From a virus: a DNA stretch of 64,000 bases. Positions 19,175-64,000 of this stretch are shown here, piece by piece; the first letter of the stretch is position 1, and every line of letters starts with the position of its first letter. The notes under the pieces are model-generated. The model did not search any database. It saw only the letters and a program-made list of their open reading frames with translations, and was not told the origin of the DNA. The stretch is taken from IMG/VR virus record IMGVR_UViG_3300046012_000505, positions 37,003 to 101,002 of that record, one strand, 5' to 3'. Made by a program: the position numbers and the translations under genes.

Positions 19175-19365
19175 CCGGCGCCGACATGTGCGCGTGGAGA
19201 ACCCGTCTCGCGCTGCGCCAGGAGGACGCCGCGTCGCTCATCGGCTGCTCCAGCCGCCGGCTACGCAGCTACGAGCACGACGACGCGATTATCCCGAGGA
19301 AGATCGAACTCGCGTGTGAGGCGATCGAGGCACGTTTAACGAGGGGGAATGAAAATGCAGCGTGA
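19171..19365 (+). CDS. Short HTH protein preceding the methyltransferase (64 aa)
   Basis: WRTRLALRQEDAASLIGCSSRRLRSYEHDDAIIPRKIELAC is an XRE-like helix-turn-helix with little else. It overlaps the methyltransferase start by 17 nt, so the two are co-translated. Such a small HTH next to a methylase is reminiscent of controller proteins of restriction-modification loci, although no restriction endonuclease is seen. Confidence 0.7.
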   Translation: MTGADMCAWRTRLALRQEDAASLIGCSSRRLRSYEHDDAIIPRKIELACEAIEARLTRGNENAA

Positions 19366-25931: not shown

Positions 25932-26146
25932 CTCGCTTTCCTCGAATAATTCGGGTGAGGAATGCCCTTCATCGCCCGCGCGCCGCCGCGCGACCGCAGC
26001 GGGATGCCGGACGCCGCGAGATAGGCCCGAACGGGCGATTTTGTGTATCCGAGGATCTTCGCGACCTCGCGCATCGTCTTGCCCTCGCCGTAAAGGCGGA
26101 TGGCTGCCGCGAGAGGGAATACACGGCCGAGGCGGGCGCGGGTCAT
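25928..26146 (-). CDS. Small HTH protein (72 aa)
   Basis: FPLAAAIRLYGEGKTMREVAKILGYTKSPVRAYLAASGIPLRSRGGARAM is a resolvase-like/homeodomain-like HTH of the sort seen in short phage DNA-binding proteins. ATG at 26146, overlapping the methyltransferase stop (ATGA). Basic C-terminus. May bind DNA as a co-regulator. Confidence 0.65.
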   Translation of the reverse strand: MTRARLGRVFPLAAAIRLYGEGKTMREVAKILGYTKSPVRAYLAASGIPLRSRGGARAMKGIPHPNYSRKAR

Positions 26147-27357: not shown

Positions 27358-27743
27358 CCCATCGCCCTCATCTGCGCCCGGTCCTGCACGACCGGCGGCG
27401 ACGCCTTCTCCGCCGGCCGCCAGCACCGCGCATGATGCTCCTCGCAGTACTGCGAGCCGTGCCGCAGTTCGGCGCCGCAGTAGATGGCATCGCCGAGGGC
27501 GAGCCAGTTCGGCGACCCCGCGATGAACTGGCAGCCGCGCTTGCCAGGCCGCGCAACAGCAACTGGGGTGGCGGTCGGCTTGATCGGGCTGACGCGTGCC
27601 GGCAGGTCCAGCCGATGAGCGCGGCCTACGACGGAGTTCTTGGTGACGCCCAGGCGCCGACCTATCTCGGCGGTCGAATAACCAGCCGCCCACAGGGTCC
27701 GCAACGCGCCGTCGAGCTCCGGCGTCCAGCTCGATGGGATCAT
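27354..27743 (-). CDS. GcrA-family regulator (129 aa)
   Basis: WTPELDGALRTLWAAGYSTAEIGRRLGVTKNSVVGRAHRLDLPAR matches the N-terminal HTH of GcrA, an alphaproteobacterial transcription regulator that binds sigma-70 RNA polymerase and CcrM-methylated DNA. The C-terminal CQFIAGSPNWLALGDAIYCGAE...YCEEHHARCW resembles the Cys-containing tail of GcrA. It is shorter than host GcrA (about 170 aa). A phage copy could reprogramme host promoters; this is inference. Confidence 0.88.
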   Translation of the reverse strand: MIPSSWTPELDGALRTLWAAGYSTAEIGRRLGVTKNSVVGRAHRLDLPARVSPIKPTATPVAVARPGKRGCQFIAGSPNWLALGDAIYCGAELRHGSQYCEEHHARCWRPAEKASPPVVQDRAQMRAMG

Positions 27744-28905: not shown

Positions 28906-29930
28906 CGCCCCTCGACCACAGCGGCGCGCGCCGTTGCCTCGGCCTCGCTGATCTTGAACACCGCTGCGAGCCGGGCGATCGGCGCGCCGTCCCGCACCGC
29001 CTTGGCGAAGCGGGCATCCTCCGACATCGCACCGAGGAATTCCGGTGCCGCAAGGGTGGCGCCATCTCTGGGCGCCCCCGCTGGCTGCGCAGGCCTCGTC
29101 ACGAGCGCAGGTGCCGGCTTCATCACACTCCATGACGGCGCTGCGCCGGCGACGCCCTGCCGCAGCAGACGCTCGATCGCCATCTGGACGGTGATCTTCA
29201 TCTCGGCCGAGATGGCGACCGCCCGCGGGAAGAGCCAGTCGCCGTCTGTGCGGCCCAGGAAGGCGGCGAGCCGGTTGGCATAGGGCCCGGGCTCGTCGGC
29301 ATTGTGGGTAACGGCGACGGCGGCGAGAAAGAGCGCGGCGCGCAGGAAATGCGGCTTTTCGCGATAGGCTTTGACGACCGCGCCCAGGCCGAGTCGGACA
29401 TCGTCCGGCGGATAGTCCGCGATCACCCTGCCGAGCGCGCCGATCGCCATCGTCTCGCCGGACTTCAACTGCTTCGCCCCCGAGGGATGGCGCGGGATGG
29501 AAAGGCCGAGCTCGTCGCAAAGCGACTTGATTGCCAGCGCCCGCTCATCGCCGGCCGCGAGTTTGGCGTGGTGGATCGCCATGGTGGTCATGGCGACGCG
29601 GTTCTGGTTGGTGTCGACGAAGATTGCCGCCTGTTCGGCGAACGAGCTGGCCCTGACGATGACAGCCGGCACATGCGTCTCGCCGCGCCGGCGCGCCGCC
29701 TCGACCCGGTGGCCGCCGTCGATCACGAGCCAGCCATCGCCGTTTTCAGTGGCAATAATCGTCTGGAAGGCTGACCAATTGAACCGCTCTACGAGCCTTG
29801 CGATCAACGCTTGGCTACGCCGGCTTTCGAGATTCCGCTGGTACCGCTCGTCGACCGAAAGTCGCGCGACGGGCAGCCACCCCATCTCCGGCTTCGGTCC
29901 GGGGTCCGCATGTGGGGCGGCCTCGCTCAC
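28902..29930 (-). CDS. ParB/Srx-fold N-terminal domain protein (342 aa)
   Basis: LPVARLSVDERYQRNLESRR then IDGGHRVEAARRRG matches the ParB nuclease-like domain (a phosphatase/NTPase-like fold), which in ParB proteins binds CTP. The C-terminal two-thirds is helical. A DNA-binding HTH is not visible. Phage proteins of this type occur often, with partition or recombination roles suggested. Coupled to the winged-helix gene (ATGA). Confidence 0.75.
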   Translation of the reverse strand: MSEAAPHADPGPKPEMGWLPVARLSVDERYQRNLESRRSQALIARLVERFNWSAFQTIIATENGDGWLVIDGGHRVEAARRRGETHVPAVIVRASSFAEQAAIFVDTNQNRVAMTTMAIHHAKLAAGDERALAIKSLCDELGLSIPRHPSGAKQLKSGETMAIGALGRVIADYPPDDVRLGLGAVVKAYREKPHFLRAALFLAAVAVTHNADEPGPYANRLAAFLGRTDGDWLFPRAVAISAEMKITVQMAIERLLRQGVAGAAPSWSVMKPAPALVTRPAQPAGAPRDGATLAAPEFLGAMSEDARFAKAVRDGAPIARLAAVFKISEAEATARAAVVEGR

Positions 29931-30295
29931 ACCCTCTGCTCCAAGCAGTACCCAAACCCGTACCGCGTCTCGATCTTGTGCGACGCGCCAGCGAGTTTCT
30001 TCCGCAGCCGCTTGACATGCGACCGCACGCTGTCGCCGTTGCCAGCGTCGCCGTATGGGGTCAGCGCGTCGGCGATGTTCTCGTAGGTGAAGATGCGGCC
30101 CGGCCGGCTGGCGAGCAGAGAGAGCAGCGCGTATTCTGTCCGGGTCAGCGGCCGGCGACCGTCGCCGACGATGACCGAATAGTTATCATGATCGAGAAAG
30201 GTGCCGGCGCCTTCGCGAGCGCCGGCAGTCTGGTCCGCCACAGGGGGGAGGGCGGCGGACGGTCGGCATTTCGGGTGCGCGGCGAGGGAGATCAC
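29927..30295 (-). CDS. OmpR/PhoB-type winged-helix DNA-binding protein without receiver (122 aa)
   Basis: RRPLTRTEYALLSLLASRPGRIFTYENIADALTPYG...SVRSHVKRLRKKLAG followed by RYGFGYCL is the effector domain of response regulators: helices and wing are intact, and the N-terminal receiver is absent. Small standalone winged helices act as phosphorylation-independent regulators. Coupled to ACP 2 on one side and the ParB-like gene on the other. Confidence 0.82.
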   Translation of the reverse strand: MISLAAHPKCRPSAALPPVADQTAGAREGAGTFLDHDNYSVIVGDGRRPLTRTEYALLSLLASRPGRIFTYENIADALTPYGDAGNGDSVRSHVKRLRKKLAGASHKIETRYGFGYCLEQRV

Positions 30296-30525
30296 GCGAG
30301 CTTCCCCTCGACCGTCTTGACGACATCGCCGACCGTGACCCAGGACGACTGCTCTTCCGGCGTGATGCGGCCGATGGCGAATTCCTGCTCCAGCGCCAGC
30401 CCGATCTCTTCGAATGTCAGGCTGTCGGCGCCGAGGTCTTCGATCAGGCGCGCAGCGTCCTCGACGGCCGGCGTCACGACGGCAGCGATGATCGTGCGGA
30501 CGCGCGCGCCAATGTCCTGCGTCAT
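30292..30525 (-). CDS. Acyl carrier protein 2 (77 aa)
   Basis: DLGADSLTFEEIGLALEQEF has the DSL motif with Ser35 as phosphopantetheine site. ACP 2 is only distantly similar to ACP 1 (5944-6201). The start at 30525 overlaps the acyltransferase-like gene stop (ATGA), so carrier and enzyme are translated together. The ACP may carry an acyl group transferred by that neighbour. Confidence 0.85.
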   Translation of the reverse strand: MTQDIGARVRTIIAAVVTPAVEDAARLIEDLGADSLTFEEIGLALEQEFAIGRITPEEQSSWVTVGDVVKTVEGKLA

Positions 30526-31271
30526 TGCCCTTCCTCCGATGGATCCCTGATCGCGTCCGGGCTCGGCAGGTACAGCCCCCTCGCCTTCCGCCGCGTGCTG
30601 GCGAGCAGGAACGTGTCGACGTTGATGCCGAGCGCCGGGAAGTCCATCGCCACCCGGCGATGCGCCTGGTCGTAGCCGTAGGCGTCGAAGCCGAGCAGCC
30701 GCGTGACCCGCTCCTCGGCGAACCCGATCAGCCAGGTGACGTACCAGGTCGAGATCGCCCAGGTATGCGCGATCCTCATCATCGGCTCGACGAGGCGGTG
30801 CTGCATCACGCTGGCGTCGACCCAGACGCACCCGCTCAGCGCGATCGGGCAGTCCTCGATCTGATGGGCAAGCTCTGCCGTGACGATGCAGCGGCCCTCT
30901 CTGCCGGCGACGTGCGGGTTCGCGTAGAACAGCCGGCGGGTGACGAGATTGTCGTAGAGCGAATTTTCGAGCTCGATGCGCCGGGTCGCGCAGCAGGCGA
31001 CGACCTTGCCGTCCCGCTCGACCATGACGACGACAACCTCATGCGGGCCGCCGACGTTCGGCCAGAAATCGGGATTGAACGGCTGAAAGAGGATTTGCCC
31101 GGTGTCCCGCTTGATCCGCGCGATGGTGTCGAGATCGTGGGCGAGGTAGACGCGCAGCCCGGCGGCGTCCAATGCGTCGGTGATGGCGATGAGGCGCTTG
31201 CCGACCTCGATGCGGACGAGCTGCGGCAGCAGGGGCGCGGCGATGCCTTCGGCGAGCAGGATGCGGGTCAT
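30522..31271 (-). CDS. Putative acyltransferase partner of ACP 2 (249 aa)
   Basis: MTRILLAEGIAAPLLPQLVR... with VVVVMVERDGKVVACCATRRIEL, ALSGCVWVDASVMQHRL, and MRIAHTWAISTWYVTWLIGFAEERV resembles a GNAT-like acyltransferase fold: central strands plus an alpha helix that would bind the acyl donor. No canonical Q/RxxGxG/A motif is evident, so the assignment is weak. Exact translational coupling to an ACP is the main functional clue. Confidence 0.45.
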   Translation of the reverse strand: MTRILLAEGIAAPLLPQLVRIEVGKRLIAITDALDAAGLRVYLAHDLDTIARIKRDTGQILFQPFNPDFWPNVGGPHEVVVVMVERDGKVVACCATRRIELENSLYDNLVTRRLFYANPHVAGREGRCIVTAELAHQIEDCPIALSGCVWVDASVMQHRLVEPMMRIAHTWAISTWYVTWLIGFAEERVTRLLGFDAYGYDQAHRRVAMDFPALGINVDTFLLASTRRKARGLYLPSPDAIRDPSEEGQ

Positions 31272-32350
31272 GCCGCAATCCTCTCGCGCTTCAGCACCTT
31301 CGTCGCCGACACGACGCCGCCGTTCTTTCCGCGCGGCCCGTCCGGCATGGCGAGGCTGAGATAGTCGACCTGATCGTTGCCGATCGGCGCCTGGACGCGG
31401 CGCAGGACCGGGCCGCTCCGGGCGACCTGCATCCAATGGCGCGTCATGTCGGCGAAGCGCAGCGTCGGAATTGCCATGATGTTCTTGCCGGCCCAGTCGT
31501 CGGGGAGGCCGAGCTGTCCCGCGAGGATCGGCAGCGTCACGTCCTCGCCGACGACGTTCAGATAGGACGCGCGCCCCGGCATGTTGCGGAGCGATGCCGC
31601 CCATGCCGAGCCGGGGTCGTCGGTGCTCTCGGCGAGGATCGCGCGGAACTCGGGGACATTATTGGCGACCTCGAGGCCGAGCTGATGCACCACCAGATAG
31701 GGCGTCGGAAGCTTTGCCGAGAGCGCCAGGGCGTTGGCGGCTTCCCCGGGCGAGGCAGGGACCGCCGCGACCCATTCCCCCGCGCAGTCGACGACGCGGC
31801 GCACGGTGCGGAGCGTCTTGCGGCCCTCATCGATGAGGAAGGCGCAGGCGCGCGACACGGCGGCTTGGTTGGCCTGCCCTTCGGTATAGCGCAGCTCGGC
31901 GGTGAAATCGGGGCGCAGGGTGAGAGATACCCAGCCCAGCATGCGATGAGCGAAACGCTCGGTTGCCGTCTCGCCGACGGCGCGGCGGATGAACTCGAGG
32001 CTCCCGTGCGCGGCGTGGTGGAGATTGCCGGCATCGTCGCACCAGAAAATTTGATCGGCGTGCGGGCGAAGCTGGGTGACGTTGGAATTGACGGCCGGCA
32101 GCTGACCGCAGACGCCGGGTGCCTCGACCCCGTAGACCTCGCCGACAAACCCATGATCACCTGACTTGGCAAAGAATGCCGCGAGGTTGAACACCGCCTC
32201 CGCCGTGATCCGCGTCGAGCCGGCGACGTAGCGGTCGAAGGTGTCGATCGAGACGCCGGCCGCGTGCGCCAGGGTCTTTGCCCGGACGCCGGTATTGGGA
32301 TAGGTGCGGCGGCGGAGCGCGGCAGCGAAGCGGGAGGCGAGTACGGTCAT
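31268..32350 (-). CDS. HTH-N-terminal hypothetical regulator (360 aa)
   Basis: N-terminal TGVRAKTLAHAAGVSIDTFDRYVAGSTRITAEAVFNLAAFF is an XRE-like HTH. The remaining 300 residues are not recognised; FADMTRHWMQVARSGPVLRRVQAPIGNDQVDYLSLAMPDGP is notable near the end. It is coupled to the acyltransferase-like gene. Possibly a regulator with a sensory domain. Confidence 0.6.
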   Translation of the reverse strand: MTVLASRFAAALRRRTYPNTGVRAKTLAHAAGVSIDTFDRYVAGSTRITAEAVFNLAAFFAKSGDHGFVGEVYGVEAPGVCGQLPAVNSNVTQLRPHADQIFWCDDAGNLHHAAHGSLEFIRRAVGETATERFAHRMLGWVSLTLRPDFTAELRYTEGQANQAAVSRACAFLIDEGRKTLRTVRRVVDCAGEWVAAVPASPGEAANALALSAKLPTPYLVVHQLGLEVANNVPEFRAILAESTDDPGSAWAASLRNMPGRASYLNVVGEDVTLPILAGQLGLPDDWAGKNIMAIPTLRFADMTRHWMQVARSGPVLRRVQAPIGNDQVDYLSLAMPDGPRGKNGGVVSATKVLKRERIAA

Positions 32351-46655: not shown

Positions 46656-47194
46656 GCACGCCAGAATATCGCGGCGTCTTGGTCCGCGAGCTCGGCGGCA
46701 CGCGCACCCTCTGCGTCGGCATGCAGAACCCGAGCAAGGCGGCGGCGCACGATCCTTCCGTCAACGATCCGACCGTCCTGCGCCTGATCGGCTTCACCGG
46801 CCGGCTCGAGTTCGGCCGGCTGATCGTCGTCAATACCTACGACAGGACGGCGACCGATCCTGCCGACCTCTACCGGTGGCTGTGGTCGCTTTCGGCAAGC
46901 GAGCGGGAGGAACATCGCCGGCGCGCGCTCGACATCGCCATCCGCGAAGCACTCTCCGCCGACCTCTTCATCGCAGCATGGGGCAACGGCAGCCCGGATG
47001 ATCGCTGGCCGCTCAGCTTCGCCGACGGGCTCGTAGCGGCCGGCATCGATCTCTACCACCTCGGTCTCAATCAGAACGGCACGCCAAAGCACCCGCTCGC
47101 CCGCGGCAAGAACCGGATCCCGGATGATCAGGTTCCGGCACTGTGGCGGCGCGGGCAGGCCATCGCCGACGCGCGGAAGGAGATGGGTGGCTAA
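46652..47194 (+). CDS. DUF1643 protein (180 aa)
   Basis: TLCVGMQNPSKAAAHDPSVNDPTVLRLIGFTGRLEFGRLIVVNTYDRTATDP and AAWGNGSPDDRW match DUF1643, a phage family (N-P-S-x-A...D-P-T motif) of unknown biochemical function, perhaps nucleotide related. Coupled to the HerA-like gene (ATGA). Confidence 0.88.
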   Translation: MSTPEYRGVLVRELGGTRTLCVGMQNPSKAAAHDPSVNDPTVLRLIGFTGRLEFGRLIVVNTYDRTATDPADLYRWLWSLSASEREEHRRRALDIAIREALSADLFIAAWGNGSPDDRWPLSFADGLVAAGIDLYHLGLNQNGTPKHPLARGKNRIPDDQVPALWRRGQAIADARKEMGG

Positions 47195-47514
47195 TGGCCG
47201 CTCCGCGCCAGCGCCCGGCATCCGAGCCTCGCGGCTATACGCTCGACGAGGTCGCGAATTATCTCGGCCACGCGCGCAATTGGCTGACCGCCGAACGGCT
47301 CGCCGAGCTGCGCAAGAGCGGCTTCCCGCCCATCGACCCCCTGCTCGAGCGCGTCGACAAGCGCGCCCTTGATGCCTGGTGGGACGCGCGGAGCGGAATC
47401 CTGCCGCCGCTTGACGGCGACCGGCCGAACGATCCAGCATCCTCGCGGCCCAATCCCTGGCGAGGAGCGTTGCGCGATGGAGATCAAAATTCCCCACGTC
47501 ATCGCCATCCGTAA
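47194..47514 (+). CDS. Excisionase-like small DNA-binding protein (106 aa)
   Basis: GYTLDEVANYLGHARNWLTAERLAELRKSGFPPIDPLLERVDKRALDAWWDAR is a MerR/excisionase-type winged helix: helix-turn-helix with a wing and a W-D tail. It overlaps the integrase start by 38 nt, the usual position of an excisionase or a Cox-type accessory protein. DNA bending at attP is inferred. Confidence 0.65.
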   Translation: MAAPRQRPASEPRGYTLDEVANYLGHARNWLTAERLAELRKSGFPPIDPLLERVDKRALDAWWDARSGILPPLDGDRPNDPASSRPNPWRGALRDGDQNSPRHRHP

Positions 47515-48529
47515 GCGCGGCGGCCGGAAAGGCGATCGCGTCCTCTACTACTGGCGCCGCAAGGGTCACAAGCTGCGTCGCCTGCCGAACGACCCACGGG
47601 CGCCGGCGTTCCTCGCGAAGCTCAATCAGTTCGAGCGCGAGGCGGCGGCAGAGGCCGGGCCGGCCGCCCCGGATCCCGAAACCATCGCCTGGCTGATAGA
47701 AAAATACCTCGCCAGTCCCGACACCGCCGCGCTGGCGCCGCGCACCGTGGTCAATTATCGCTTCTTTCTCAACCGCCTCCTGCCAAAGTTCGGCCATCTC
47801 CCCTATGCCGCCCTCGACCGCGAGGCGGTCTATGATCTGCGGGACCATTTCGCGGCCAAGCCAAACACCGCGAACGAGATCGTCTCGGCGCTGCGCGGCA
47901 TGCTGACATGGGCCGTCGACCGCGGCATCCTCGCGGTCAACGTGGCGCAGCGCCCGAAGCGCATCTATGTCGCCCGCCGCCACGCAATGTGGTCCCACGC
48001 CGACGAGAAGGCCTTCCTCGATGCGGCCGACCCGACGATGGCGCTCGCCTTCATGCTCGGCGCCTACACGGCGCAGCGCCTCGCCGATATCTGCGGGATG
48101 ACCTGGGGCCAGTACAACGGCAAGACGATCAAGCTCGTCCAGATGAAGACCGAGCGTCGCGCCCATCGCCTTATCGAGGTGCCGTGCCATGCCGACCTCA
48201 AGACCGTTCTCGACGCCGCCAAGCGATCCTCGATCATGATCCTGACGACGCCGACCGGGAAGGCGTTCAAGCCGTCGAATTTCAACCTGCGCTGGAAGAT
48301 GGTCTCGCGCGCCGCCGGGATCAGAGGGCTGCAGTTCCGCGATCTCCGGCGCACCGCCATCGTCCGGCTCGGCGAGGCCGGTGCAAATGCCATCCAGATC
48401 GCCGCGGTCAGCGGCCACGACATCAACACCAGCCAGAAGATTTTGGAGACCTATTTGCCGCGCAATTTCCGCATGGCGGAAGCGGCGATCTTGGCGCTCG
48501 AGCGAGACAGGCCGGGAACAAAAGTGTAA
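47477..48529 (+). CDS. int: Tyrosine integrase (350 aa)
   Basis: The catalytic set is Arg201 (TAQRLADICGMTW), Lys224, box II as R-D-L-R (288-291) with Arg in place of the usual His, His314 (SGHDINTSQKILETYL) and Tyr326. The N-terminal core-binding domain (PETIAWLIEKYLASP...RTVVNYRFFLNRLLPKFG) is present. It would integrate at attB using the attP just downstream. ATG at 47477; the stop TAA lies in the first GTGTAAACGG arm site. Confidence 0.93.
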   Translation: MEIKIPHVIAIRKRGGRKGDRVLYYWRRKGHKLRRLPNDPRAPAFLAKLNQFEREAAAEAGPAAPDPETIAWLIEKYLASPDTAALAPRTVVNYRFFLNRLLPKFGHLPYAALDREAVYDLRDHFAAKPNTANEIVSALRGMLTWAVDRGILAVNVAQRPKRIYVARRHAMWSHADEKAFLDAADPTMALAFMLGAYTAQRLADICGMTWGQYNGKTIKLVQMKTERRAHRLIEVPCHADLKTVLDAAKRSSIMILTTPTGKAFKPSNFNLRWKMVSRAAGIRGLQFRDLRRTAIVRLGEAGANAIQIAAVSGHDINTSQKILETYLPRNFRMAEAAILALERDRPGTKV

Positions 48530-48706
48530 ACGGTTCTCGTTACGGTGTAAACGAATGGCGGATTTCTGCGGGTGAGAATAGGGATCGATCTCGGAGGGAC
48601 AGTTATCGAATCGCTGAAAAACGGCGGATTCCAGCCAATCGTTTACACCTGGACTACCCACCGACGACCAAGGATATCCGCCAGATTTTCGGCGTGGTGT
48701 AAACGG
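48524..48706. other. Putative attP with four GTGTAAACG arm sites
   Basis: GTGTAAACGG (48524-48533), GTGTAAACGA (48545-48554), TCGTTTACAC inverted (48639-48648) and GTGTAAACGG (48697-48706). The first two are 21 bp apart and overlap the integrase stop; the third is inverted. This fits integrase arm-type binding sites around a core within ~48560-48635. The core itself is not identified. Confidence 0.6.
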
Positions 48707-48717
48707 TTTTTGCTCCC

Positions 48718-48909
48718 ATGATCGCCTATCTCGGCTTCTCCCGGACCACTGAGGTAGATGTCGATCCGCGCGATCTCGGCTGCGGCGCCGGGGAGGTTCC
48801 GTGCTTCGAATGCGAGGGATCTGGAATCTGGGCCTTCATGGAGCCGGAGATTCCGGCCGAGCCGTGCGTCAATTGCAAGGGGACCGGGATCGTGTTGATC
48901 TCGATTTGA
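48718..48909 (+). CDS. DnaJ-type zinc-module protein (63 aa)
   Basis: CFECEGSGIWAFMEPEIPAEPCVNCKGTGI contains two CxxCxGxG motifs like the DnaJ central domain, a close analogue of the 71-aa protein at 16020-16235. First gene past attP. Role unknown. Confidence 0.65.
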   Translation: MIAYLGFSRTTEVDVDPRDLGCGAGEVPCFECEGSGIWAFMEPEIPAEPCVNCKGTGIVLISI

Positions 48910-48925
48910 GAGAAGGAAGCGAGAA

Positions 48926-49204
48926 ATGACGCCTCGGATATATCGAGCCCTGCAATTGTTGAGCGCCGGCCCACGCCCCATCGACAGCTTCGCCGGCAAT
49001 CTACGCGAGGGCTTGATCGACGCCGGCATGGCAGAGCCGCCGCTAGTCGATACGAACGGCCCGCGCGCCGCGCTCACTGAGGCCGGGCGCGCCGCGCTAG
49101 CGAAAGAGACATACGGACGCGATATGCTGAGTCTCAACGCCAAGATCGCAATGGGCAAGCCGGGCGCGTACCCGAGTGAGGATGTCGAGGAGATCAAGTT
49201 TTGA
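48926..49204 (+). CDS. Hypothetical protein (92 aa)
   Basis: MTPRIYRALQLLSAGPRPIDSFAGNLREGLIDAGMAEPPLV... begins like a winged-helix domain, with a helix (LTEAGRAALAKETYGRDML) near the middle. Good ribosome-binding site (GAAGGAAGCGAG). Function unknown. Confidence 0.55.
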   Translation: MTPRIYRALQLLSAGPRPIDSFAGNLREGLIDAGMAEPPLVDTNGPRAALTEAGRAALAKETYGRDMLSLNAKIAMGKPGAYPSEDVEEIKF

Positions 49205-55359: not shown

Positions 55360-58300
55360 TTACGGCGCCGCAAACGGCGAGTTCATCTTTGCCTCGCGCT
55401 GCCCTCGCGGTCCGCGTTTCATGGCGGTCGTGTCCGGGCTGATCCGCTGCGCCAGCCGCTGTTTGATCGCCTTCGCCGTCACCGCGACATCCGGATTCTT
55501 GGCGAGCAGATCATGCAACTCGTCCTGCAGCCGGCCGGCTTCTGCCGCGTCGCCGCGGGCAGACGCCGCCATGGCCTGTTCCTCGATCGCGGTCGCCTGG
55601 CCGAGCTTCTCCGCCTGCAATTCCTGTTTGGCGTGATCCGTCCGGTATTCGTAGTCGCGGTATTCGTAGTCGCGCGCCAGCCTGGCGCCGGTGAAACCGA
55701 GCCCCGCCGCCACCTGATCGGCGGTCGTGACGTCCTTCGCCGGAACGATCACATCGCCCTTCTGCGTCCGGACGCCTTCCGTCGGGAACGCCTCGGCGCC
55801 GCGCACGAGGTTCCGCGCCGCCGACGGCAGCAGTTCTGCTGCCGCGGCGATCGGCTGACCGCCGTGCGTGTACCTTGTGTGCGCCGCCGACAACCGCTGG
55901 TAAAGCATCGATGGCACCACGCCGAGCGCGGAGGTCGGCGTCAGGTTCTTCGACCCGGCATCGCCGAACCCCAGCCGGCTCGAGAGGTCGATCCCCAGCA
56001 CGGACCGCGCCGGACCGCGCAGCATCATCTCGGCGGCGAGCTTCGAGAACCCGACGTCCTCCATGAGCTGGTAAATCCGCGCCTCTGCCTGTGGGTCTAT
56101 GCCGGTCAGCATCTTGTGCATCTCGTCGTAGGCCTTCTCGGCATCGCCGGCGAACGGCAGCCCCAGCGCGCCGCCGAGCATACCGAGACCAGCCATCATG
56201 AACAGGGCCGCGCCCTTACCCTCCGGTCCCATGCGGTGCATCATCTTCCACACGGACGAGAGGTAGTTCATCTCAAAGTTCCGGAACTGGAACAGCATCG
56301 TGCCGGCGGCGCCGCGTGCCATCGGCGCCCGGTTCGTCTTGCCCCAGACGAACAGCCCCTCGTCGACCAGGAATTTCGCCATCGAGGCCGGCGTCAGGCC
56401 GTCCCGGGCGGCCATGCGCTGGAACACCTGATTATTGCCCCACGCCTTGGCGCCCTTCTCCAGCATGCCGGGCTGGCTGTAGAGCCGGTATCCGGCCAGC
56501 AGGGCGCCGACGCGGTTCACCTGATCGGCCGTGCTGATATTCGATGCCGCGATGTCGAGCATGCGGCCCCACATCTTGGCGTGCGGCCGCAATGCCTCGC
56601 TGTGCCCCTGGCCGAGCCCGCGGATGTCGTCGGCGGCCACGGCGTGGATGAGGCCGGTCCGCAGAGCCTCGGCGATCAACGCCTTCTCCGCCGGCGTCCG
56701 CCCCATGCGGTCCATATCGACGTGCAGGCCACGCTCGCCGTTGACGCGGATCGCGCGCACCGCCTCGCCGAGCGCGCCGTAGAGGTGGCGACCGGCCGCA
56801 CCGTATCCGACGCCGGCGCCGAGCGTCGCGTGGGCGACCATCGGACCGTGGGTCGCGATCAGCGCCGTGCTCGAGGGATTGGCAGCCAGCGCCCAATAGA
56901 ACCCGAACTGCCGCAGCGCCTGCATCTCGGTCTTCGGGCTGTTCTGATACTCGGACCATTTCTGCCAGTATTGGCGAACGCCCGGGTCGGGGTGCGTGTC
57001 GATATAGGCTTCCTGCGCCTGCCGGATCGCGTCGCGGTGCAGCATGTCGGCCGCGTGGCCGGACGTCCAGCCGAGGTATGAGCCAGTCGCGCGTTCGAAG
57101 TCCGGGCTGTAGCCTGGCACGGTCCTCGACCGCCGTTTAAATCCAGCCTTCATCTCCTCATACATCTGGTCGCGCATCTTCTCGACCATCGGGCCGTACA
57201 ACTCGCTGTCCTTCTGCTGCAGCGCCATGAACAGCTTCTCGACCGCCGGGATGTCGAGTTTCCGCAGCGCCTCGGCGTTGCGCGCCAGATAGCCATCCTC
57301 AATCCGGTGCGTATCGGATTCCCATCCCTGTTCTCCGCGGCGCCAATTCCCCGGGTATTTCGCCCGCAACTCTTTGATGCGCGCGTCCGCCGTCTTCGGA
57401 ACGCGACCGTTATCGGCCTTGCCGAAAAGCTTGTCGAACGCCCCCTTGCTGTCGACGAGTTCGAAGCGAACAACGTCGGGATGGCCGCCCAACGAATCGG
57501 GCGCCTTCCCTGCTTTTTCCTTCACGGCGATGTAATAGTCGCCGAACCGCATCAGCGGCACGTATCCCGACCGCGCCTGCCCCTGCATGTTCTCGACGAG
57601 GTCGGCGATGCCGCGCAGCCGCTTCGCCTCGCCGGCCGCCAGCATCGGCCGATCGGCGGCCGCGCGAATTGCCGCCGGATCGACCGCGCCATCCCATCCG
57701 AGTTTCCGAGCAGCCGACTCGGTCAGCGTGTTCCACACGTCGCGGAACAGCGCGCGCCGCTCGTGGTAGACAGCCGACGTGGCCGGGTCGAGCGCGATCG
57801 CCTGACCGGGCTTGCTGTGCTCGGCTTCTTCCTGTCCCTCGTTCCGGGCGACGATCTGCCGGCCATCGTTCGGCCGCACCCTGCCGTTGAGCCGGTCCAA
57901 CTCCTCGACCGCGTGCAGCCGCGTCCGCTGCGCCGGCGACAGGTCGACATAGCCCTTCGACTTCTCCGCCCAATCGTGATGCAGCCCGTTCGCCGTCGCA
58001 TCCTTCCGCCGCCACTCGTCCCAGACGCGCGACGAGCGCCAGTCCATGGTTGCCAGCGAGCGCGGCAGGATGACAAACTTCTCGAGCGCGCCGAGGAACT
58101 TGGTCGGGGCGCCCTTCGCCGACGGCAGCATCCTCGCCAGCGTGCGCGCGTAGGTGCCGGCACCCTTGCCGCCGTTCGCCTCTGCCATGGCATCCGCCAC
58201 GTTATCCATTGGATCGTGGCCGCCTGGCGCGATCTCCGGCACCTCTGGGTTGGCCGGACGCTGGAACAACGCACCCTGCTTCGGTTGCTGGTCGCCGAAC

Positions 58301-61300
58301 AGGCCGCCCGGCTCCTCCTGGGGTTTCCCGCTGCGTAGTTTGCTCTGCCGTTGGAGCAGTTTCGCCTCCTGCTGCGCGCGGCGATCGTCCTCGACGCGCG
58401 CGGCCTCCCGCGGCGTCACCCGCTCGGCGCCGGGGATGACCCGCTGCGGGCCTTGATCGGTCTGGTCGATGGTCGGCCGCTGGGCGGCTCGCTTGACACT
58501 CGCGCCGGGCGCGTGGTTATCTTGCTCGCCGCCCTTGGTTAGCGACTCCTGGCGCGGGGATATAGTTGAGGGCTGCGGCCCCCGACCTGAAATTTCCCCC
58601 GAGCGAGAGCTGCCATTGGCGGCGCCTTCATTATCATCCTGCCATTCTCTGAACGAGTAACCTCCGCCAAACCCGTCGCCGGCATGTCGGTAGTCCTCGT
58701 TTTCTATCGCCGCGATGTGATCGCCGAGAGATAGCCCCGGCTCGATCGCGACATTGGTTTTCCAGGAGCCGCCTTGCCGTTCCCCGTTCTTCATCCCAAG
58801 CGCGTGATCGGAGATCCGGATTTGCTCGCCGTTGAGTTCGCCGGAGCGGCTTAGGTAGTAGGAGGACGCGCTGTCGCCTTTCTTTGAAACGTGATCGATG
58901 CGCCAGCCGCGCGCCAAGAGAGCATCTTTCAGGTCCGCTAGTATAGACGCTCGCTGCGCAGACCCGCGCTGGGCGGCCGCAGCCATCTCCGGCACGCCGG
59001 TTGACTCGCCAGCGCGCCGACCCACAGCGCCGCTCTCGATGCGGGTGAACACGTCGTCTGGCGTCACGTTCTTGCCCAGCACGGAGCGCGCCGCCGCAGC
59101 AACCCGGCGCCGGAACAGGTCAAGCTTGTAGAAAATCGGCTGCAGCCACTCGGGGAGCCGAGAGATCAACCCGCCGTCGCGCCGCCAGTCGGAGAACCGC
59201 TCGGCGATCGCCTCCTCGAGGTGCCCGTCTGCCGACAGGCCCGGCCAGCGGTTCGCCACGTCGTATTTCTGCGACCAACCATCATCGGCCGCACCCTTCG
59301 TCAGCGCGGCCCACTCGTCAGCACCCAGCAGGCCGGACCGGCGGAGTTGATGGATAACCTCATGGCGCATGGTCTGCTCGGCATCGGGCGACTTGAGCGA
59401 CCACGAGACGATATGCGCGAGGCTTTCCGGGTCGACATGCGTGGCGCCGAACGTGCCGAACCGCTGGCCGCCCGCGTCCTCGCCGCGCAACGAGGTCGCC
59501 GCCTGAGTCTTGGTCCCCGGCGCCATTTTACGCGCGATTTCATTTACACGGTCGGACAGCGCCCGCTCGGCCGGCGTGAACTCGGACTCGGGCTTGAACG
59601 TGCCGGTCAGGTTGCTGGCGAGGCGGCGGCGCTGGCCTTCGCCGACGTTGCCGGGCAGCGCCTCGACAGCGCCGTGCTGTTGCGCCGCCTCATCTTCCGG
59701 CGCCGCCTCACCAACAGGCAACTCCTTCGGCTTCTCGACCGGCTTCAACTCGGTCTCGAGATCGCTCACCGCACGGCGCAGTCGTTCGATCTCGTCATAG
59801 CCCTCGAATGGCTTCCCGATCTGCGGGCGCAGCGAATCAAGATACCGCTGCGCTTCCGCTCGCTGCTCCTGGCTATAGCGCAGGTCGCCTTCCATGTTCC
59901 GGATGCGGTGTTCTGCCGATCCGATGACGCTCGACGCGCTGTGCCCCTCGCCCTTCAACTGGTCGAGCTCGTCACCGTTCCGGCGCAGGTAATATTCCGG
60001 GTTGTCGCGGCCGTCCTTGGCGACGATCAGCGGGAATCCGCCGATCGAGCCAATCTCGGCCTCGCCGCCGCGCGGCAGTCCCGGGAACACCTTAGCGTGC
60101 GCGTCCGACAGCGCGATCGCCGCATCCTTCCTGACCGCGAACGGCTTGCTGCCTACCCGCATATTGAACAACTCGCCGCGCGTGTCCTTGCGCTGGGCGA
60201 GGTCCTGCTGCACCGCCGGAATGCGCTTGTCGAAATGCGCGATCCTGCTCTGCGCATCGCGTGCCCGCGCCTTCATGCCGTACTGCTCGCGGTCGTAAGC
60301 CTGCAACCGGCGCTGCGCCTTGTCCAACTGCTGGCGCAGGTCGGTCAGCGTGATAAGCCGCTCGTCGGACGTCGCCATGGCCGACGCCTGCTCGTACATG
60401 CTGGCCTCGCCCAGGTCTTCCATATCGCGGAGTTCCGGGTCACCGCGGAAGAACTGCTCGATGAACCGCCCCTTGCGGCCCATCATCTGCCACATCGTCG
60501 AGTCGTATGTGCCCTTGGTCGAATAATCGTGAATCTGCACTTCCGGGTTGAGGTTGCCCTGCCGGATCGCTCGGCCGACGCGCTGCTCGTCATCCGCCGG
60601 GAACCACAGCGGGTCTTGATTGTGCAGCGCGACGAGCCGGCGCTGCGCGTTGACGCCGGTGCCCATCTTCTGCGTCGAGCCGATCAGGATGCGGACCTTG
60701 CCCTCGTTCACGTCATTGAAAAGCTTCTGCCGGGCGACGTGCGACTTGTAGTCCTTGATGAACGCGATCTCGTTCGCCGGCACGCCGCGGCGGATCAAGT
60801 CGCTTTTCATCCACTGGTAGCCCGAGAAATCGCGCGTGCCGCCCTCGCCGATGCCAAGATTGGCAAAGACCATCTGCGCTGCCGGCCCCTTGAACAGCGG
60901 CTTTTCGTAGTTGGTCTTCGGGTCATAGAATTGCTGGTTCTTCGTGTCCTTCCAGATGCGGTGGACGTTGTCGATCATCGCGTTGAGTTTCGACGACGGA
61001 TCGTTCGGCGATGCTGCGCCTGCCACGAACCGTGGGTCGATCGCCGCGTGTCGCCCGTCGTTGATGACGGACAGCAGGATGTCGTCGCCCTTCTGCGGCG
61101 GCCCCTTGCGCTCCCTGATCGCTTTGATGCGGTCCGCCAGAACCTGCTGGTAATCCCTCAGCGTGTCGGTCAGCGGCGCAAGGTGGAACTGGCGCTGTCC
61201 GCCGGCCATCTTCGGCCGCACGACGTACTGCTCAAGCTGGCTCGGCGTGACGACGTCCATGACGCCGCCGACCATCTTGTAGAGCTCCGGGATATTCACG

Positions 61301-64000
61301 AACCGCGAGAACCGCGTGACCGGCGCGTAACTGCCGTCGGCGGTCTGCTCGAGTTCGTTCTTCACATCGCCGAACGTCGACGCCCAGGAGTCGAAATGCG
61401 ACAGCCCGCGCCTCTCCAACTCCTCCGGCTGGAGATACCGGCTGATCGTGTAGAGCTCGCCCATCGTGTTCGTGACCGGCGTACCAGACGCCAGCACCGC
61501 CGAGCGGCCCGGGCTCTTGCTGTCGAGGTAGCGCAGCTTCGTGTAGAGGTCCCACGCCGCGTTCGAGCCTTCCGGCGTGATGCCCTTCAAGCCGCTCTGC
61601 TTTGTCCCGAAAGAAAGTTTGCGGAATCCGTGCGCCTCATCGACAAAGGCGAAGTCGACTCCCATCTCCTCGAACGTGTTGACCGCATCCTGCTTGCCGG
61701 CACCGCGGCCGGACAGCTTCTGCTCAAGCTTCTCCTTCTGCTTTTCCAGCCGCTTGACCGTGATCCGATCGTCCTTCGCGTCCAACTCGCTCAGCGCGGC
61801 GTCGATCATGTCGATCTGCTCGCTGATGAGATGCGCCTGGAACTCGTCGCTGATCGGGATTTTCCCGAACCCGGAATGCGTGATGATGATGGCGTCGAGG
61901 TCGTTCTGAGACACATCGGCGACGAACTGCTTGCGGCGGTCGGTGTGAAACCGCCGCTCGTCGGCCACGGCGATGCGCGCGGTCGGATACTGCTCGTAGA
62001 ACTCCTTCGCGAACTGGCCCAGCATGTGGTTTGGCACCACGTACATAGGCTTGCGGACAAGCCCAAGACGGCGCATTTCCATTCCCGCCCCGATCATCGC
62101 CGAGGTCTTGCCGGCGCCGACCGCGTGCGCCATGTAGGTGCTGCCGTCCTGGATGATGCGCGCCACCACGCGCTTCTGGTGCGGGCGCCATGACCAGTCC
62201 GTCGAGACGCCGGGCGTCGTCAGATACGAGCCATCGAACTGCCGCAGGACCACGCGGTTGAGCTTGTCGTTGTAGAGCGTGGCAAGGCTGTCCGCTCGCG
62301 CCGGATCGCCGCCGGCCCAGTCGTCGAACGCCTGGCGCATCGCATCGTACTTGTCCTGCGCTGCCTGCGTGGCGACCGCATCGAACGTGCGCGTCGTGCT
62401 CCCGTTGACCTTCTCGGTCCGGTAAATCCTCGGCGGCGTCCGGTTGAGCGAGTCCGCCAGCAGGTCGAATGCGCCGCGGTCCTGCGTGCCCCACTCCGCT
62501 CGGCCAGGCCCGTCTCCAGCACGCGAGCCGTCGACAATCCAGCCGCCCGTCACGTCGGAGTGCCGCACGCGCGGCTCGCCAATGCCCAGGCGGTCGCGGG
62601 CGAACTCCGCGATCGTCTCCGGCGGGATCCACGGCATGCCGAGCGTCATGGTGATCTCGGATGGCGCCAGCGGCGCTGGCTGTGCCGCATCGAGCGCCGA
62701 GACGTTCCGGCGCACGTCAGGGTCGCTGGCCGCGTGAGCGCGCGCTACAGCCAGCTTGTCGACGACGTCGCCGGACAGATACTCGTCCTTGGTCTGGTAG
62801 GTGTCGTCCGTGCCCGGCACCTTGAAAATGCTGTCGCCGAGCTCGTTGATGACGCCCTGACGGTCCGTACCCATCTTCGCGGCGATCGCATCGAGGTCGA
62901 GGCGGCCGTGCTTGTTGAGAGACCACAGCACGCCATCGTTGGCGCTCTTGATCTCCGGCTCCTGCTCCTTCGTCAGGATGTTCTCGTCGAAGATGCGGCG
63001 CTTGGTCGCTTTCCCCGTTGCGTCGTCGTAATACTCGACCGACCGGAGCCGATAGCTCTCCTGGTCGTCCATGAACGGATCGATGTTCGGCCGCTTCTCG
63101 ATCACGATGTCCGGCATGTCGTCGGGATCGAACGAGCCGTGATCGAACTTCCGACCCTCGCGCTCGGCGCGGTCCATGGCATCTTTGCGGGCGCGTGCGA
63201 TTTCCTGCGTCTTCGCCTTACGCTCGATCATCGGCGTCGGGTCGAATTCGCCCTCGTCGAAATACTCGCCGCGGTCGCGCGCCATCTCGCGCGCCTCGGC
63301 GCGCGCGTTCTCGGCCTGGATGATGTTCGGGCGCCGGTACTGGTAGTCTGTCTTGTTGATGGGCCCGTACTTCCGCACGAACCGGTCATAGTGGCGGTTG
63401 AGGTCTTCCCGCGCCTTTGCCGCCGCCTCGGTATCCTCCGCCAGGTCGGCGCGGAACACCTCGCGCAACGCGTCGCGGACCGGGATCATGGTCTGCACGC
63501 GCTCCATCTCGGCGGCAGTCATGCCGCCGGTGACCCCGGCGCCGCGCTGCTCCACCGGGCGACCAACGCCGTTCCGGTACTGCATCAGGCGGCCGTTCTG
63601 CGTGTAGAAACTGCCGTCCTTCTTCTGCCCCGACGCGAAGTCCAGCGCCGCCCGGTCTTCCGGGGTCGGCAGGTGATCCATGACGTCCTTCGGCAGGCGA
63701 TCGACCGCCGCGCGCAGGTCCGCCTCTAGGTCTTGGCCCTCGATCGGCCGAACCCCGTACCGGCCCTCGTAGAGCTTGTCGAAAAACCCTTCCTGCCCCA
63801 GCACCTGTTCCGGATGGTCGGAGAAATAACGGCTGACGTTGCCCTCGGTCGTGCCGCCCTTCGCATCCGGCAGCGTCCGCTTGACCACGCCAGTCCATTC
63901 GAGCGACCCAGGCTCCGCACCCTCGGCGCGCTTCTTGAAGAACAGGATGTCCGTCGTCACTTCCGTGCCGGCGTTCTTCTTGAACGCCGACGATGGCACT
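55360..64000 (-). CDS. Polyvalent DarB-like helicase/peptidase protein, 5' end missing (at least 2,879 aa)
   Basis: The frame runs off the right edge. Residue numbers count from the window edge. An SF2 helicase has motif I GAGKT (about 628), motif II DEAH (about 787) and a C-terminal part GSTQKMGTGVNAQRR (about 1105) with QRVGRAIRQGN. A zincin HEVIH (about 1546) in MRHEVIHQLR is followed by LEEAIAERFSDW. The rest is long linker and helical domains typical of phage polyvalent proteins. In P1, DarB-like proteins are injected and protect DNA. The methylase is probably upstream, outside the window. Confidence 0.9.
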   Translation of the reverse strand, partial: VPSSAFKKNAGTEVTTDILFFKKRAEGAEPGSLEWTGVVKRTLPDAKGGTTEGNVSRYFSDHPEQVLGQEGFFDKLYEGRYGVRPIEGQDLEADLRAAVDRLPKDVMDHLPTPEDRAALDFASGQKKDGSFYTQNGRLMQYRNGVGRPVEQRGAGVTGGMTAAEMERVQTMIPVRDALREVFRADLAEDTEAAAKAREDLNRHYDRFVRKYGPINKTDYQYRRPNIIQAENARAEAREMARDRGEYFDEGEFDPTPMIERKAKTQEIARARKDAMDRAEREGRKFDHGSFDPDDMPDIVIEKRPNIDPFMDDQESYRLRSVEYYDDATGKATKRRIFDENILTKEQEPEIKSANDGVLWSLNKHGRLDLDAIAAKMGTDRQGVINELGDSIFKVPGTDDTYQTKDEYLSGDVVDKLAVARAHAASDPDVRRNVSALDAAQPAPLAPSEITMTLGMPWIPPETIAEFARDRLGIGEPRVRHSDVTGGWIVDGSRAGDGPGRAEWGTQDRGAFDLLADSLNRTPPRIYRTEKVNGSTTRTFDAVATQAAQDKYDAMRQAFDDWAGGDPARADSLATLYNDKLNRVVLRQFDGSYLTTPGVSTDWSWRPHQKRVVARIIQDGSTYMAHAVGAGKTSAMIGAGMEMRRLGLVRKPMYVVPNHMLGQFAKEFYEQYPTARIAVADERRFHTDRRKQFVADVSQNDLDAIIITHSGFGKIPISDEFQAHLISEQIDMIDAALSELDAKDDRITVKRLEKQKEKLEQKLSGRGAGKQDAVNTFEEMGVDFAFVDEAHGFRKLSFGTKQSGLKGITPEGSNAAWDLYTKLRYLDSKSPGRSAVLASGTPVTNTMGELYTISRYLQPEELERRGLSHFDSWASTFGDVKNELEQTADGSYAPVTRFSRFVNIPELYKMVGGVMDVVTPSQLEQYVVRPKMAGGQRQFHLAPLTDTLRDYQQVLADRIKAIRERKGPPQKGDDILLSVINDGRHAAIDPRFVAGAASPNDPSSKLNAMIDNVHRIWKDTKNQQFYDPKTNYEKPLFKGPAAQMVFANLGIGEGGTRDFSGYQWMKSDLIRRGVPANEIAFIKDYKSHVARQKLFNDVNEGKVRILIGSTQKMGTGVNAQRRLVALHNQDPLWFPADDEQRVGRAIRQGNLNPEVQIHDYSTKGTYDSTMWQMMGRKGRFIEQFFRGDPELRDMEDLGEASMYEQASAMATSDERLITLTDLRQQLDKAQRRLQAYDREQYGMKARARDAQSRIAHFDKRIPAVQQDLAQRKDTRGELFNMRVGSKPFAVRKDAAIALSDAHAKVFPGLPRGGEAEIGSIGGFPLIVAKDGRDNPEYYLRRNGDELDQLKGEGHSASSVIGSAEHRIRNMEGDLRYSQEQRAEAQRYLDSLRPQIGKPFEGYDEIERLRRAVSDLETELKPVEKPKELPVGEAAPEDEAAQQHGAVEALPGNVGEGQRRRLASNLTGTFKPESEFTPAERALSDRVNEIARKMAPGTKTQAATSLRGEDAGGQRFGTFGATHVDPESLAHIVSWSLKSPDAEQTMRHEVIHQLRRSGLLGADEWAALTKGAADDGWSQKYDVANRWPGLSADGHLEEAIAERFSDWRRDGGLISRLPEWLQPIFYKLDLFRRRVAAAARSVLGKNVTPDDVFTRIESGAVGRRAGESTGVPEMAAAAQRGSAQRASILADLKDALLARGWRIDHVSKKGDSASSYYLSRSGELNGEQIRISDHALGMKNGERQGGSWKTNVAIEPGLSLGDHIAAIENEDYRHAGDGFGGGYSFREWQDDNEGAANGSSRSGEISGRGPQPSTISPRQESLTKGGEQDNHAPGASVKRAAQRPTIDQTDQGPQRVIPGAERVTPREAARVEDDRRAQQEAKLLQRQSKLRSGKPQEEPGGLFGDQQPKQGALFQRPANPEVPEIAPGGHDPMDNVADAMAEANGGKGAGTYARTLARMLPSAKGAPTKFLGALEKFVILPRSLATMDWRSSRVWDEWRRKDATANGLHHDWAEKSKGYVDLSPAQRTRLHAVEELDRLNGRVRPNDGRQIVARNEGQEEAEHSKPGQAIALDPATSAVYHERRALFRDVWNTLTESAARKLGWDGAVDPAAIRAAADRPMLAAGEAKRLRGIADLVENMQGQARSGYVPLMRFGDYYIAVKEKAGKAPDSLGGHPDVVRFELVDSKGAFDKLFGKADNGRVPKTADARIKELRAKYPGNWRRGEQGWESDTHRIEDGYLARNAEALRKLDIPAVEKLFMALQQKDSELYGPMVEKMRDQMYEEMKAGFKRRSRTVPGYSPDFERATGSYLGWTSGHAADMLHRDAIRQAQEAYIDTHPDPGVRQYWQKWSEYQNSPKTEMQALRQFGFYWALAANPSSTALIATHGPMVAHATLGAGVGYGAAGRHLYGALGEAVRAIRVNGERGLHVDMDRMGRTPAEKALIAEALRTGLIHAVAADDIRGLGQGHSEALRPHAKMWGRMLDIAASNISTADQVNRVGALLAGYRLYSQPGMLEKGAKAWGNNQVFQRMAARDGLTPASMAKFLVDEGLFVWGKTNRAPMARGAAGTMLFQFRNFEMNYLSSVWKMMHRMGPEGKGAALFMMAGLGMLGGALGLPFAGDAEKAYDEMHKMLTGIDPQAEARIYQLMEDVGFSKLAAEMMLRGPARSVLGIDLSSRLGFGDAGSKNLTPTSALGVVPSMLYQRLSAAHTRYTHGGQPIAAAAELLPSAARNLVRGAEAFPTEGVRTQKGDVIVPAKDVTTADQVAAGLGFTGARLARDYEYRDYEYRTDHAKQELQAEKLGQATAIEEQAMAASARGDAAEAGRLQDELHDLLAKNPDVAVTAKAIKQRLAQRISPDTTAMKRGPRGQREAKMNSPFAAP

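What the first reader, a model, noticed from the sequence alone, without database searches (positions are those of the whole stretch)
48524..48706. attP candidate with arm-type repeats GTGTAAACG within the phage map
Four copies in mixed orientation flank and overlap the integrase stop. The integrase lies inside the map, not at an edge, so the sequence is a circularly permuted or free phage form. The core and host attB remain open, and arm sites narrow the search.
Basis: seen in the sequence. Interest (0 to 1): 0.5.

Follow-up and report, generated by a model that had tools for sequence, protein, structure and literature searches.

The report
Phage attachment site aimed at sugar-kinase gene
A large phage carries, right behind its integrase gene, the docking site it uses to enter a bacterial chromosome; unlike its closest integrase relatives, which sit in tRNA genes, it seems to dock in the first codons of a sugar-kinase gene and to bring a replacement start for that gene.

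Summary
In detail: four exact GTGTAAACG copies at 48524+, 48545+, 48640-, 48697+ (0.06 expected per window), the first holding the integrase stop codon. The attP reading is well supported. Beside relatives of this integrase, direct TGNAAAC pairs are tied for the most frequent 7-mer pair (30 of 115 loci, 0.02 in shuffles), and stand 53-55 bp from the tRNA target in 15 of 23 loci. Rhizobium phage RHph_N28_2 has the same +,+,-,+ order around a tRNA remnant. The integrase model matches full-length lambda Int. The record is a circular assembly (126-bp end overlap).

The core was open. It is not a tRNA remnant. Window 48572-48610, between the arm sites and in the integrase's frame, reads GTG + RIGIDLGGT(V)IE, the N-terminus of ROK sugar kinases; DNA matches to ROK gene starts came up in three separate genome searches. 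My reading: attB is the 5' end of a host ROK gene and attP supplies a new start, as SXT does at prfC and islands do at dusA. This is inferred: no host or integrated copy was found, DNA similarity alone is not significant, and one spacing ruler disagrees. The rest is ordinary lambda-type biology.

The parts
47194..47514 (+). 106-aa HTH_17-like small protein overlapping the integrase start; candidate excisionase/RDF
   Evidence: PF12728 E 0.025, below cut-off; 32% identity to the HTH protein at the same position in RHph_TM3_3_14B; no PHROG hit at 0.001
47477..48529 (+). tyrosine integrase, 350 aa
   Evidence: PF00589 E 8.4e-11; phrog_1 integrase E 1.5e-38; model mean pLDDT 87.2, best PDB match full-length lambda integrase
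48524..48532 (+). arm-type site P1, contains the integrase stop codon
48545..48553 (+). arm-type site P2, 21 bp from P1
   Evidence: same place as the arm pairs of relatives
48572..48610 (+). candidate core block: GTG start plus 12 codons reading RIGIDLGGTVIE, the ROK-kinase N-terminus; in frame with the integrase, 42 bases after its stop
48595..48603 (.). crossover zone expected from the distance to P'1 in RHph_N28_2 and L148; the crossover itself is inferred
48585..48609 (.). weak inverted repeat TCGAT-N15-ATCGA, also in the ROK genes L323 and L324; possible core-type sites
   Evidence: sequence
48640..48648 (-). arm-type site P'1, inverted
   Evidence: first P' site also inverted in RHph_N28_2
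48697..48705 (+). arm-type site P'2

Best explanation
48524-48705 is the attP of a lambda-type tyrosine integrase. The integrase's N-terminal domain binds the arm sites GTGTAAACG (P1, P2 on the integrase side; inverted P'1 and direct P'2 on the far side) and its catalytic part crosses over in the core between them. The core (about 48572-48610) copies the first 13 codons of a host ROK-family sugar-kinase gene. Integration there would cut the host gene after its first codons and put the phage's own GTG start and first codons, lying 42 bases behind the integrase stop and in the same orientation, in front of the rest of the gene. The kinase stays whole but is read from phage-side sequence. Shown: the repeats, their conservation and placement in the family, the integrase type, the absence of a recognisable tRNA remnant, the in-frame ROK N-terminus. 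Inferred: that this block is the crossover core, that attB is a ROK gene, and the effect on its expression.
For: Repeats above chance. TGNAAAC tied for first among one-gap 7-mers that form direct pairs at integrase 3' ends: 30 of 115 dereplicated loci (window included), shuffled mean 0.02, reversed motif 0. Arm 2 to tRNA 3' end 53-55 bp in 15 of 23 loci, range 34-77. The trait clusters on a FastTree integrase tree: 15 changes against 26.0 shuffled, 0 of 500 as low. Same site order in RHph_N28_2. Full-length lambda Int is the best structural match. No tRNA remnant in the window's attP, while the same test finds 47 bp in L148 and 20 bp in RHph_N28_2. DNA matches at 48573-48601 are starts of ROK-type genes in each of three genome searches: L300, L323, L324 (of 25 fetched), L331 (of 13), L420 (of 16). 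Over codons R to E these five differ from the window by 23 synonymous and 8 non-synonymous codons, 5 of the 8 being the single K/V codon; L420 begins ATG AGA ATA GGG where the window has GTG AGA ATA GGG. The degenerate pattern for IGIDLGGT occurs in 24 of 190 alphaproteobacterial genomes, reversed control 0, and all 24 frames match Pfam ROK. Outside the pattern, R precedes it in 27 of 27 rows and E is kept in 24 of 27; ATG stands where the window has GTG in 11 of 24. P'1 spacing in relatives puts the crossover at 48595-48603, inside the block.
Against: No integrated copy: the ROK motif appears near the integrase stop in 0 of 166 family loci, 111 of which hold 200 bp or more behind the stop, and 0 of 27 ROK loci (26 places) show an integrase in the 3 kb or less held. 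The best DNA match (24 bp, E 9.1e-4 per genome) is unremarkable over 385 genomes, and other conserved genes recur as chance matches in the same list. For the 24 pattern-found loci agreement at IGIDLGGT is by construction. Blind searches with the peptide found no ROK protein in Pfam, the PDB or phages, and in plasmids two hits at E = 4. The P-side ruler (arm 2 to anticodon, median 95 bp) would put the crossover at 48641, on P'1 itself. P1-P2 spacing is 21 bp where 27 of 29 relatives have 11-13. The conserved K is V in the window. G001, the genome holding the closest integrase relative, shows no ROK gene. No clear ribosome site before the GTG.
Confidence: 0.7

Rival explanations
1. It is the attP with these arm sites, but the core and attB are something other than a ROK gene; the RIGIDLGGT reading is a coincidence.
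For: DNA similarity alone is not significant; no integrated copy; the P-side ruler disagrees with the ROK block; blind peptide searches missed ROK.
Against: Nine consecutive residues of a conserved N-terminus with a start codon in register, between the arm sites; mostly synonymous differences to five ROK starts found by DNA search; the DNA pattern is specific to ROK genes in 24 of 24 genomic hits; 0 of 200,000 shuffles of the inter-arm DNA encode IGIDLGGT.
Confidence: 0.22
2. The repeats are iterons or operator boxes (replication origin, partition site or repressor sites), not integrase arm sites.
For: Short repeats in a gap with slightly lower G+C (0.607 at 48000-48999, neighbours 0.62-0.69); CGTTTACAC loosely resembles a DnaA box (recalled consensus); local GC skew is mixed before and mostly positive after about 48 kb of the window.
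Against: The same kind of site sits at the same place beside relatives of this integrase in other prophages and islands that end in tRNA genes; it clusters on the integrase tree; record-wide cumulative GC skew has no extremum at the site.
Confidence: 0.04
3. attB is a host tRNA-Val(UAC) gene, whose anticodon loop reads TTTACAC like the repeats.
For: 10-12 bp identity between three repeat copies and the phage's own tRNA-Val anticodon loop; the inverted copy sits at the P-side ruler position.
Against: The identity stops at the repeat and its score equals the shuffled maximum (24.3 bits); the inverted copy would put the tRNA in the opposite orientation to the relatives' tRNA genes; the relatives' arm sites are mostly TGCAAAC or TGGAAAC (18 of 30 pairs), so the likeness is not shared.
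Confidence: 0.03

Closest known systems
Rhizobium phage RHph_N28_2 (MN988516) attP
   Same: Integrase of the same broad family, two direct (G)TGTAAACG-type sites 21 bp apart at the integrase end (the first imperfect), core, one inverted and one direct site beyond.
   Different: Core is a tRNA-Arg(TCT) remnant as I read the sequence (20 bp matched, weak Rfam tRNA hit); integrase 29% identical; longer distance between arm 2 and P'1.
Integrase modules L013 and L014 (Alphaproteobacteria MAGs J153 and nJC1bin3)
   Same: Closest integrases found (51% and 48% identity), with paired GTGGAAACGG or GTGGGAAACA sites behind the integrase.
   Different: L013 abuts a tRNA-Lys gene, L014 a tRNA-Lys remnant as I read it.
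Bacteriophage lambda Int/attP
   Same: Integrase fold, best PDB match over the full length; arm sites on both sides of a core.
   Different: Other arm sequence and target; IHF sites not searched, Xis not established here.
ICE SXT at prfC and dusA-specific islands (PMC8409611, passages read)
   Different: Other elements and genes; shown by experiment there, only inferred here.

Membership tests
lambda-type tyrosine integrase with heterobivalent attP | Phage_integrase catalytic domain | tested here: met
   PF00589 E 8.4e-11, cut-off passed
lambda-type tyrosine integrase with heterobivalent attP | Catalytic residues R, K, HxxR, H/W, Y | tested here: met
   R201, K224, R291, H314, Y326 invariant in 24 sequences; the His of HxxR is Arg (FRDLRR), shared with L013 and L014; assignment of roles is recalled
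lambda-type tyrosine integrase with heterobivalent attP | N-terminal arm-binding domain | tested here: met
   Model begins with two strands and a helix and aligns to full-length lambda Int chains over about 355 columns; no Pfam arm-binding model was hit
lambda-type tyrosine integrase with heterobivalent attP | Arm-type repeats on both sides of the core | tested here: met
   binding itself not testable here
lambda-type tyrosine integrase with heterobivalent attP | Core with inverted core-type sites and a short overlap identical to attB | tested here: inconclusive
   ROK-like block, weak inverted repeat; no host attB
lambda-type tyrosine integrase with heterobivalent attP | Xis | tested here: inconclusive
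   HTH_17-like protein below cut-off
lambda-type tyrosine integrase with heterobivalent attP | IHF sites | not tested
   not searched
tRNA-targeting integrases of this family | attP carries the 3' part of a tRNA gene between the arms | tested here: not met
   No Rfam match there at E up to 5; best tRNA match 12 bp, equal to the best of 60 shuffles, against 47 bp in L148 and 20 bp in RHph_N28_2
elements that target the 5' end of a protein gene and restore it | attP carries start codon and first codons in frame, on the side that stays with the gene | tested here: met
   GTG 48572 plus RIGIDLGGTVIE on the integrase side
elements that target the 5' end of a protein gene and restore it | Integrated copy with reconstituted gene | tested here: inconclusive
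   None found; the record is a free form
elements that target the 5' end of a protein gene and restore it | New promoter supplied by the element | not testable with these tools
   A consensus scan shows no plus-strand promoter-like site at 48300-49000

The most novel reading that the evidence does not exclude
Within one integrase lineage whose two nearest known relatives sit at tRNA-Lys genes, this phage switched target from a tRNA to the conserved first codons of a ROK sugar-kinase gene while keeping the layout in which the integrase side of attP carries the gene piece that must be restored. Lysogeny would swap the promoter and start of a sugar kinase and place it directly behind the integrase gene, so that kinase expression follows prophage state.
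Probability: 0.55. Interest if true: 0.45.

Novelty: new variant of a known kind. Interest (0 to 1): 0.36.

Why it matters
It gives a concrete, testable attB for a phage known only from sequence, and a case of target switching from tRNA to protein-gene 5' end inside one arm-site family. It also yields a spacing rule (paired TGNAAAC, most often about 54 bp to the tRNA 3' end) for locating attP and attB in part of this mainly alphaproteobacterial integrase family.

Tried and rejected
tRNA, tmRNA or other RNA gene as core: ARAGORN finds none in the window; Rfam at E up to 5 gives four weak miRNA- and CRISPR-type matches, none within 48524-48705; tRNA comparison with controls. The Rfam control was only partly good: of six relatives, tRNA remnants showed in L009, L008 and L011 at E 0.08-0.57, not in L148, L014 or L104; one search is the stronger test.

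DNA search for the attP region: no match in phages; 17 plasmid records with 21-bp matches at E 3. Paired 9-mers alone as a probe of IMG/VR: 119 stretches before the scan stopped at its limit, 80 listed and tested, 0 with this integrase, so the DNA repeat alone is not specific. Exact AGAATAGGGATCGATCTC in IMG/VR: 0. Degenerate IGIDLGGT pattern in IMG/VR: 6 stretches (two of them the same sequence); one, L450, is a ROK-like start at the edge of what I take for a transposable-phage contig; the others do not read like ROK starts. Phylum-wide search: 13 of 398 genomes; one (L331) is a ROK start, three others that overlap the block and were read (L326, L328, L337) are not, the rest were only screened for the motif. 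Order of G002: 16 of 297 genomes; one (L420) is a ROK start, 7 of the 16 fall on the GGCGGATTTCTGCGG motif. Family and order of the best-match genome, 5 genomes: only that genome again.

GGCGGATTTCTGCGG as an attP accessory site: of 9 BLAST-found loci scanned with Pfam, 4 lie by integrase genes and a tenth (L431) lies behind tRNA-Arg, but of 12 exact 17-mer places in 367 genomes (reversed control 0) only one shows an integrase in the stretch held, by tblastn with nine queries. Kept as noticed only. Portal relatives of the phage: 16 records searched for this integrase, 0 found, no positive control. Closer relatives of the integrase in IMG/VR: 5 loci, best 46%; the three whose 3' flank I read show no arm pair or tRNA, one of them having no flank at all.

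Rows dropped before counts: one search used 115 of 167 loci (42 lacked flank, 10 were near-duplicates; the window is one of the 115 and of the 30). One search used 113 (L058 and L081 left out for an in-frame stop). One search used the 23 loci with both an arm pair and an ARAGORN tRNA. One search has 27 rows for 26 places (L323 and L473 are one); 24 rows were selected by the pattern itself.

Literature: PMC8409611, PMC8074189, PMC12504390, PMC4344509 and PMC12884075 were seen as passages; the other papers only as listings. I saw no paper that reports a ROK gene as phage attB, (open-licence PMC library only; the five listed papers were not opened). PMC8074189 names glucokinase among genes next to Oenococcus oeni prophages, a possible neighbour case that I did not pursue.

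Full report
Observation. The first spans the integrase stop codon. The window is bases 37,003-101,002 of a 101,002-base virus record; its ends overlap by 126 bp, apart from two final bases, so it is a circular assembly and the inner position of the integrase is natural. A fifth copy in the record falls in the anticodon loop of a tRNA-Val in an array of 31 tRNA genes by ARAGORN.

The integrase. 47477-48529 encodes a 350-aa tyrosine integrase (PF00589). The best phage relatives are about 34-36% identical. The AlphaFold model (24 sequences, mean pLDDT 87.2, pTM 0.59) is closest to full-length lambda integrase in the PDB (1z1g_A E 2.4e-13, 355 alignment columns, rmsd 14.4). I read the high rmsd as different domain placement.

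The repeats are arm-type sites. I collected 80 bacterial and 80 IMG/VR loci with relatives of the integrase, both lists capped. At integrase 3' ends, in 115 dereplicated loci with enough flank, TGNAAAC was tied first among one-gap 7-mers for direct pairs 9-26 bp apart (30 loci; CCCAAC also 30, perhaps the arm sites of another subgroup), against 0.02 in shuffles; the reversed motif gave 0 and the reverse complement 1. In the 23 loci with both a pair and a detected tRNA, the second site stands a median 54 bp from the tRNA 3' end (15 of 23 at 53-55, range 34-77) and 95 bp from the anticodon. The trait clusters on a FastTree integrase tree (15 changes, shuffled 26.0, 0 of 500 as low). Complete attPs show further copies beyond the tRNA remnant: RHph_N28_2 (L011), L148, L104, and L119 and L009 with palindromic copies. 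RHph_N28_2 has the window's orientation pattern. In Paracoccus phage Psul1 the record itself annotates the attachment site in tRNA-Trp.

The core is not a tRNA. Compared with 98 unique tRNAs from the family loci and the phage, the window's attP (48530-48720) gives at best 12 bp, at the repeat itself, equal to the best of 60 shuffles; L148 gives 47 bp and RHph_N28_2 20 bp.

The core looks like a ROK-kinase gene start. A DNA search of 385 alphaproteobacterial genomes listed 28 matches; of the 25 fetched, three (L300, L323, L324) are starts of ROK-type frames aligned to 48573-48601. Two further searches gave one each at the same place: L331 (13 of 398 genomes matched) and L420 (16 of 297), seen on re-checking. 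The window reads GTG AGA ATA GGG ATC GAT CTC GGA GGG ACA GTT ATC GAA: V-RIGIDLGGT-V-IE. L420 reads ATG AGA ATA GGG GTC GAC CTC GGA GGA ACG AAG ATA GAA. Over R to E these five starts differ from the window by 23 synonymous and 8 non-synonymous codons, 5 of the 8 being the K/V codon. A degenerate pattern for IGIDLGGT occurs once each in 24 of 190 genomes, with no hit of the reversed pattern. All 24 frames match Pfam ROK with the motif at or near the N-terminus; ATG precedes R in 11, GTG in 1, TTG in 1. Agreement at IGIDLGGT is by construction there; outside the pattern R is present in 27 of 27 rows, I in 20 and E in 24, the window's V stands against K in all 27, and beyond E agreement ends.

How strong is that? 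DNA similarity alone is weak: E 9.1e-4 per genome over 385 genomes, and other conserved genes recur in the same list. Blind peptide searches found no ROK protein in Pfam, the PDB or phages and two plasmid hits at E = 4. I rely on the conjunction: nine consecutive conserved residues, a start codon in register, synonymous differences, the place between the arm sites, recurrence in three searches, and the P'-side spacing. That spacing (P'1 about 38-46 bp past the anticodon centre in L148 and RHph_N28_2, measured on the sequences) predicts a crossover at 48595-48603; P'2 gives 48607-48618. The P-side spacing predicts 48641 and disagrees. A P arm shorter by about four helical turns would reconcile them, which is a guess.

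Mechanism. In the relatives the integrase side of attP carries the tRNA 3' part, and the junction beside the integrase holds the whole tRNA. By the same logic the window's attP would keep the ROK gene whole: phage start and first codons, in the integrase's frame and 42 bases behind its stop, join the host's remaining codons. If the crossover lies before GTT, the host supplies the conserved K. Elements at dusA and SXT at prfC do this (PMC8409611, passages read). The promoter scan found no plus-strand candidate, so expression would come from the integrase transcript or an unrecognised promoter; untested.

What is missing. No integrated copy: the ROK motif lies near the integrase stop in 0 of 166 family loci, of which 111 hold at least 200 bp behind it, and 0 of 27 ROK loci show an integrase in the stretch held. 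The host is unknown. The excisionase role of the 106-aa protein is weakly supported.

Verdict. The arm-site finding is real and explained. I put about 0.93 on attP with these arm sites and 0.7 on the joint reading with the ROK core. It is a new variant of a known kind.

Noticed in passing
Record bases 28,930-32,211 (L006:10930-14211, outside the window): A phage with an integrase carries an array of 31 tRNA genes by ARAGORN, for 18 amino acids; Rfam's cut-off passes 23. Such arrays are better known from virulent phages (recalled).
   Followed up: partly
48557-48566 (+), 48623-48632 (+), 48672-48682 (-): Three GGCGGATWYC copies lie between the arm sites. ATGGCGGATTTCTGCGG recurs in Alphaproteobacteria (12 exact places in 367 genomes, reversed control 0), sometimes beside integrases or a tRNA; role unknown.
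   Followed up: partly
48335-48352, integrase motif FRDLRR: The His of the HxxR box is Arg in this integrase and in its two closest relatives L013 and L014.
   Followed up: no
L426, L424, L432: Another group of integrase loci with paired TTGCCACAA-type sites near tRNA-like stretches; CCCAAC pairs mark 30 loci of the present family.
   Followed up: no
55360-63999 (-): Open frame of 2879 aa that reaches the record's end. Elsewhere in the record lie a DNA-ejection-like protein and one related to phage stabilization proteins.
   Followed up: no
19349-22036 (+), 26143-27693 (-): Two large DNA methyltransferase genes by PHROGs.
   Followed up: no
IMG/VR records G748-G763: Sixteen records with related portal proteins gave no match to this integrase, which may mean that the integration module is not ancestral to the phage group; no positive control, some records are fragments.
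   Followed up: partly
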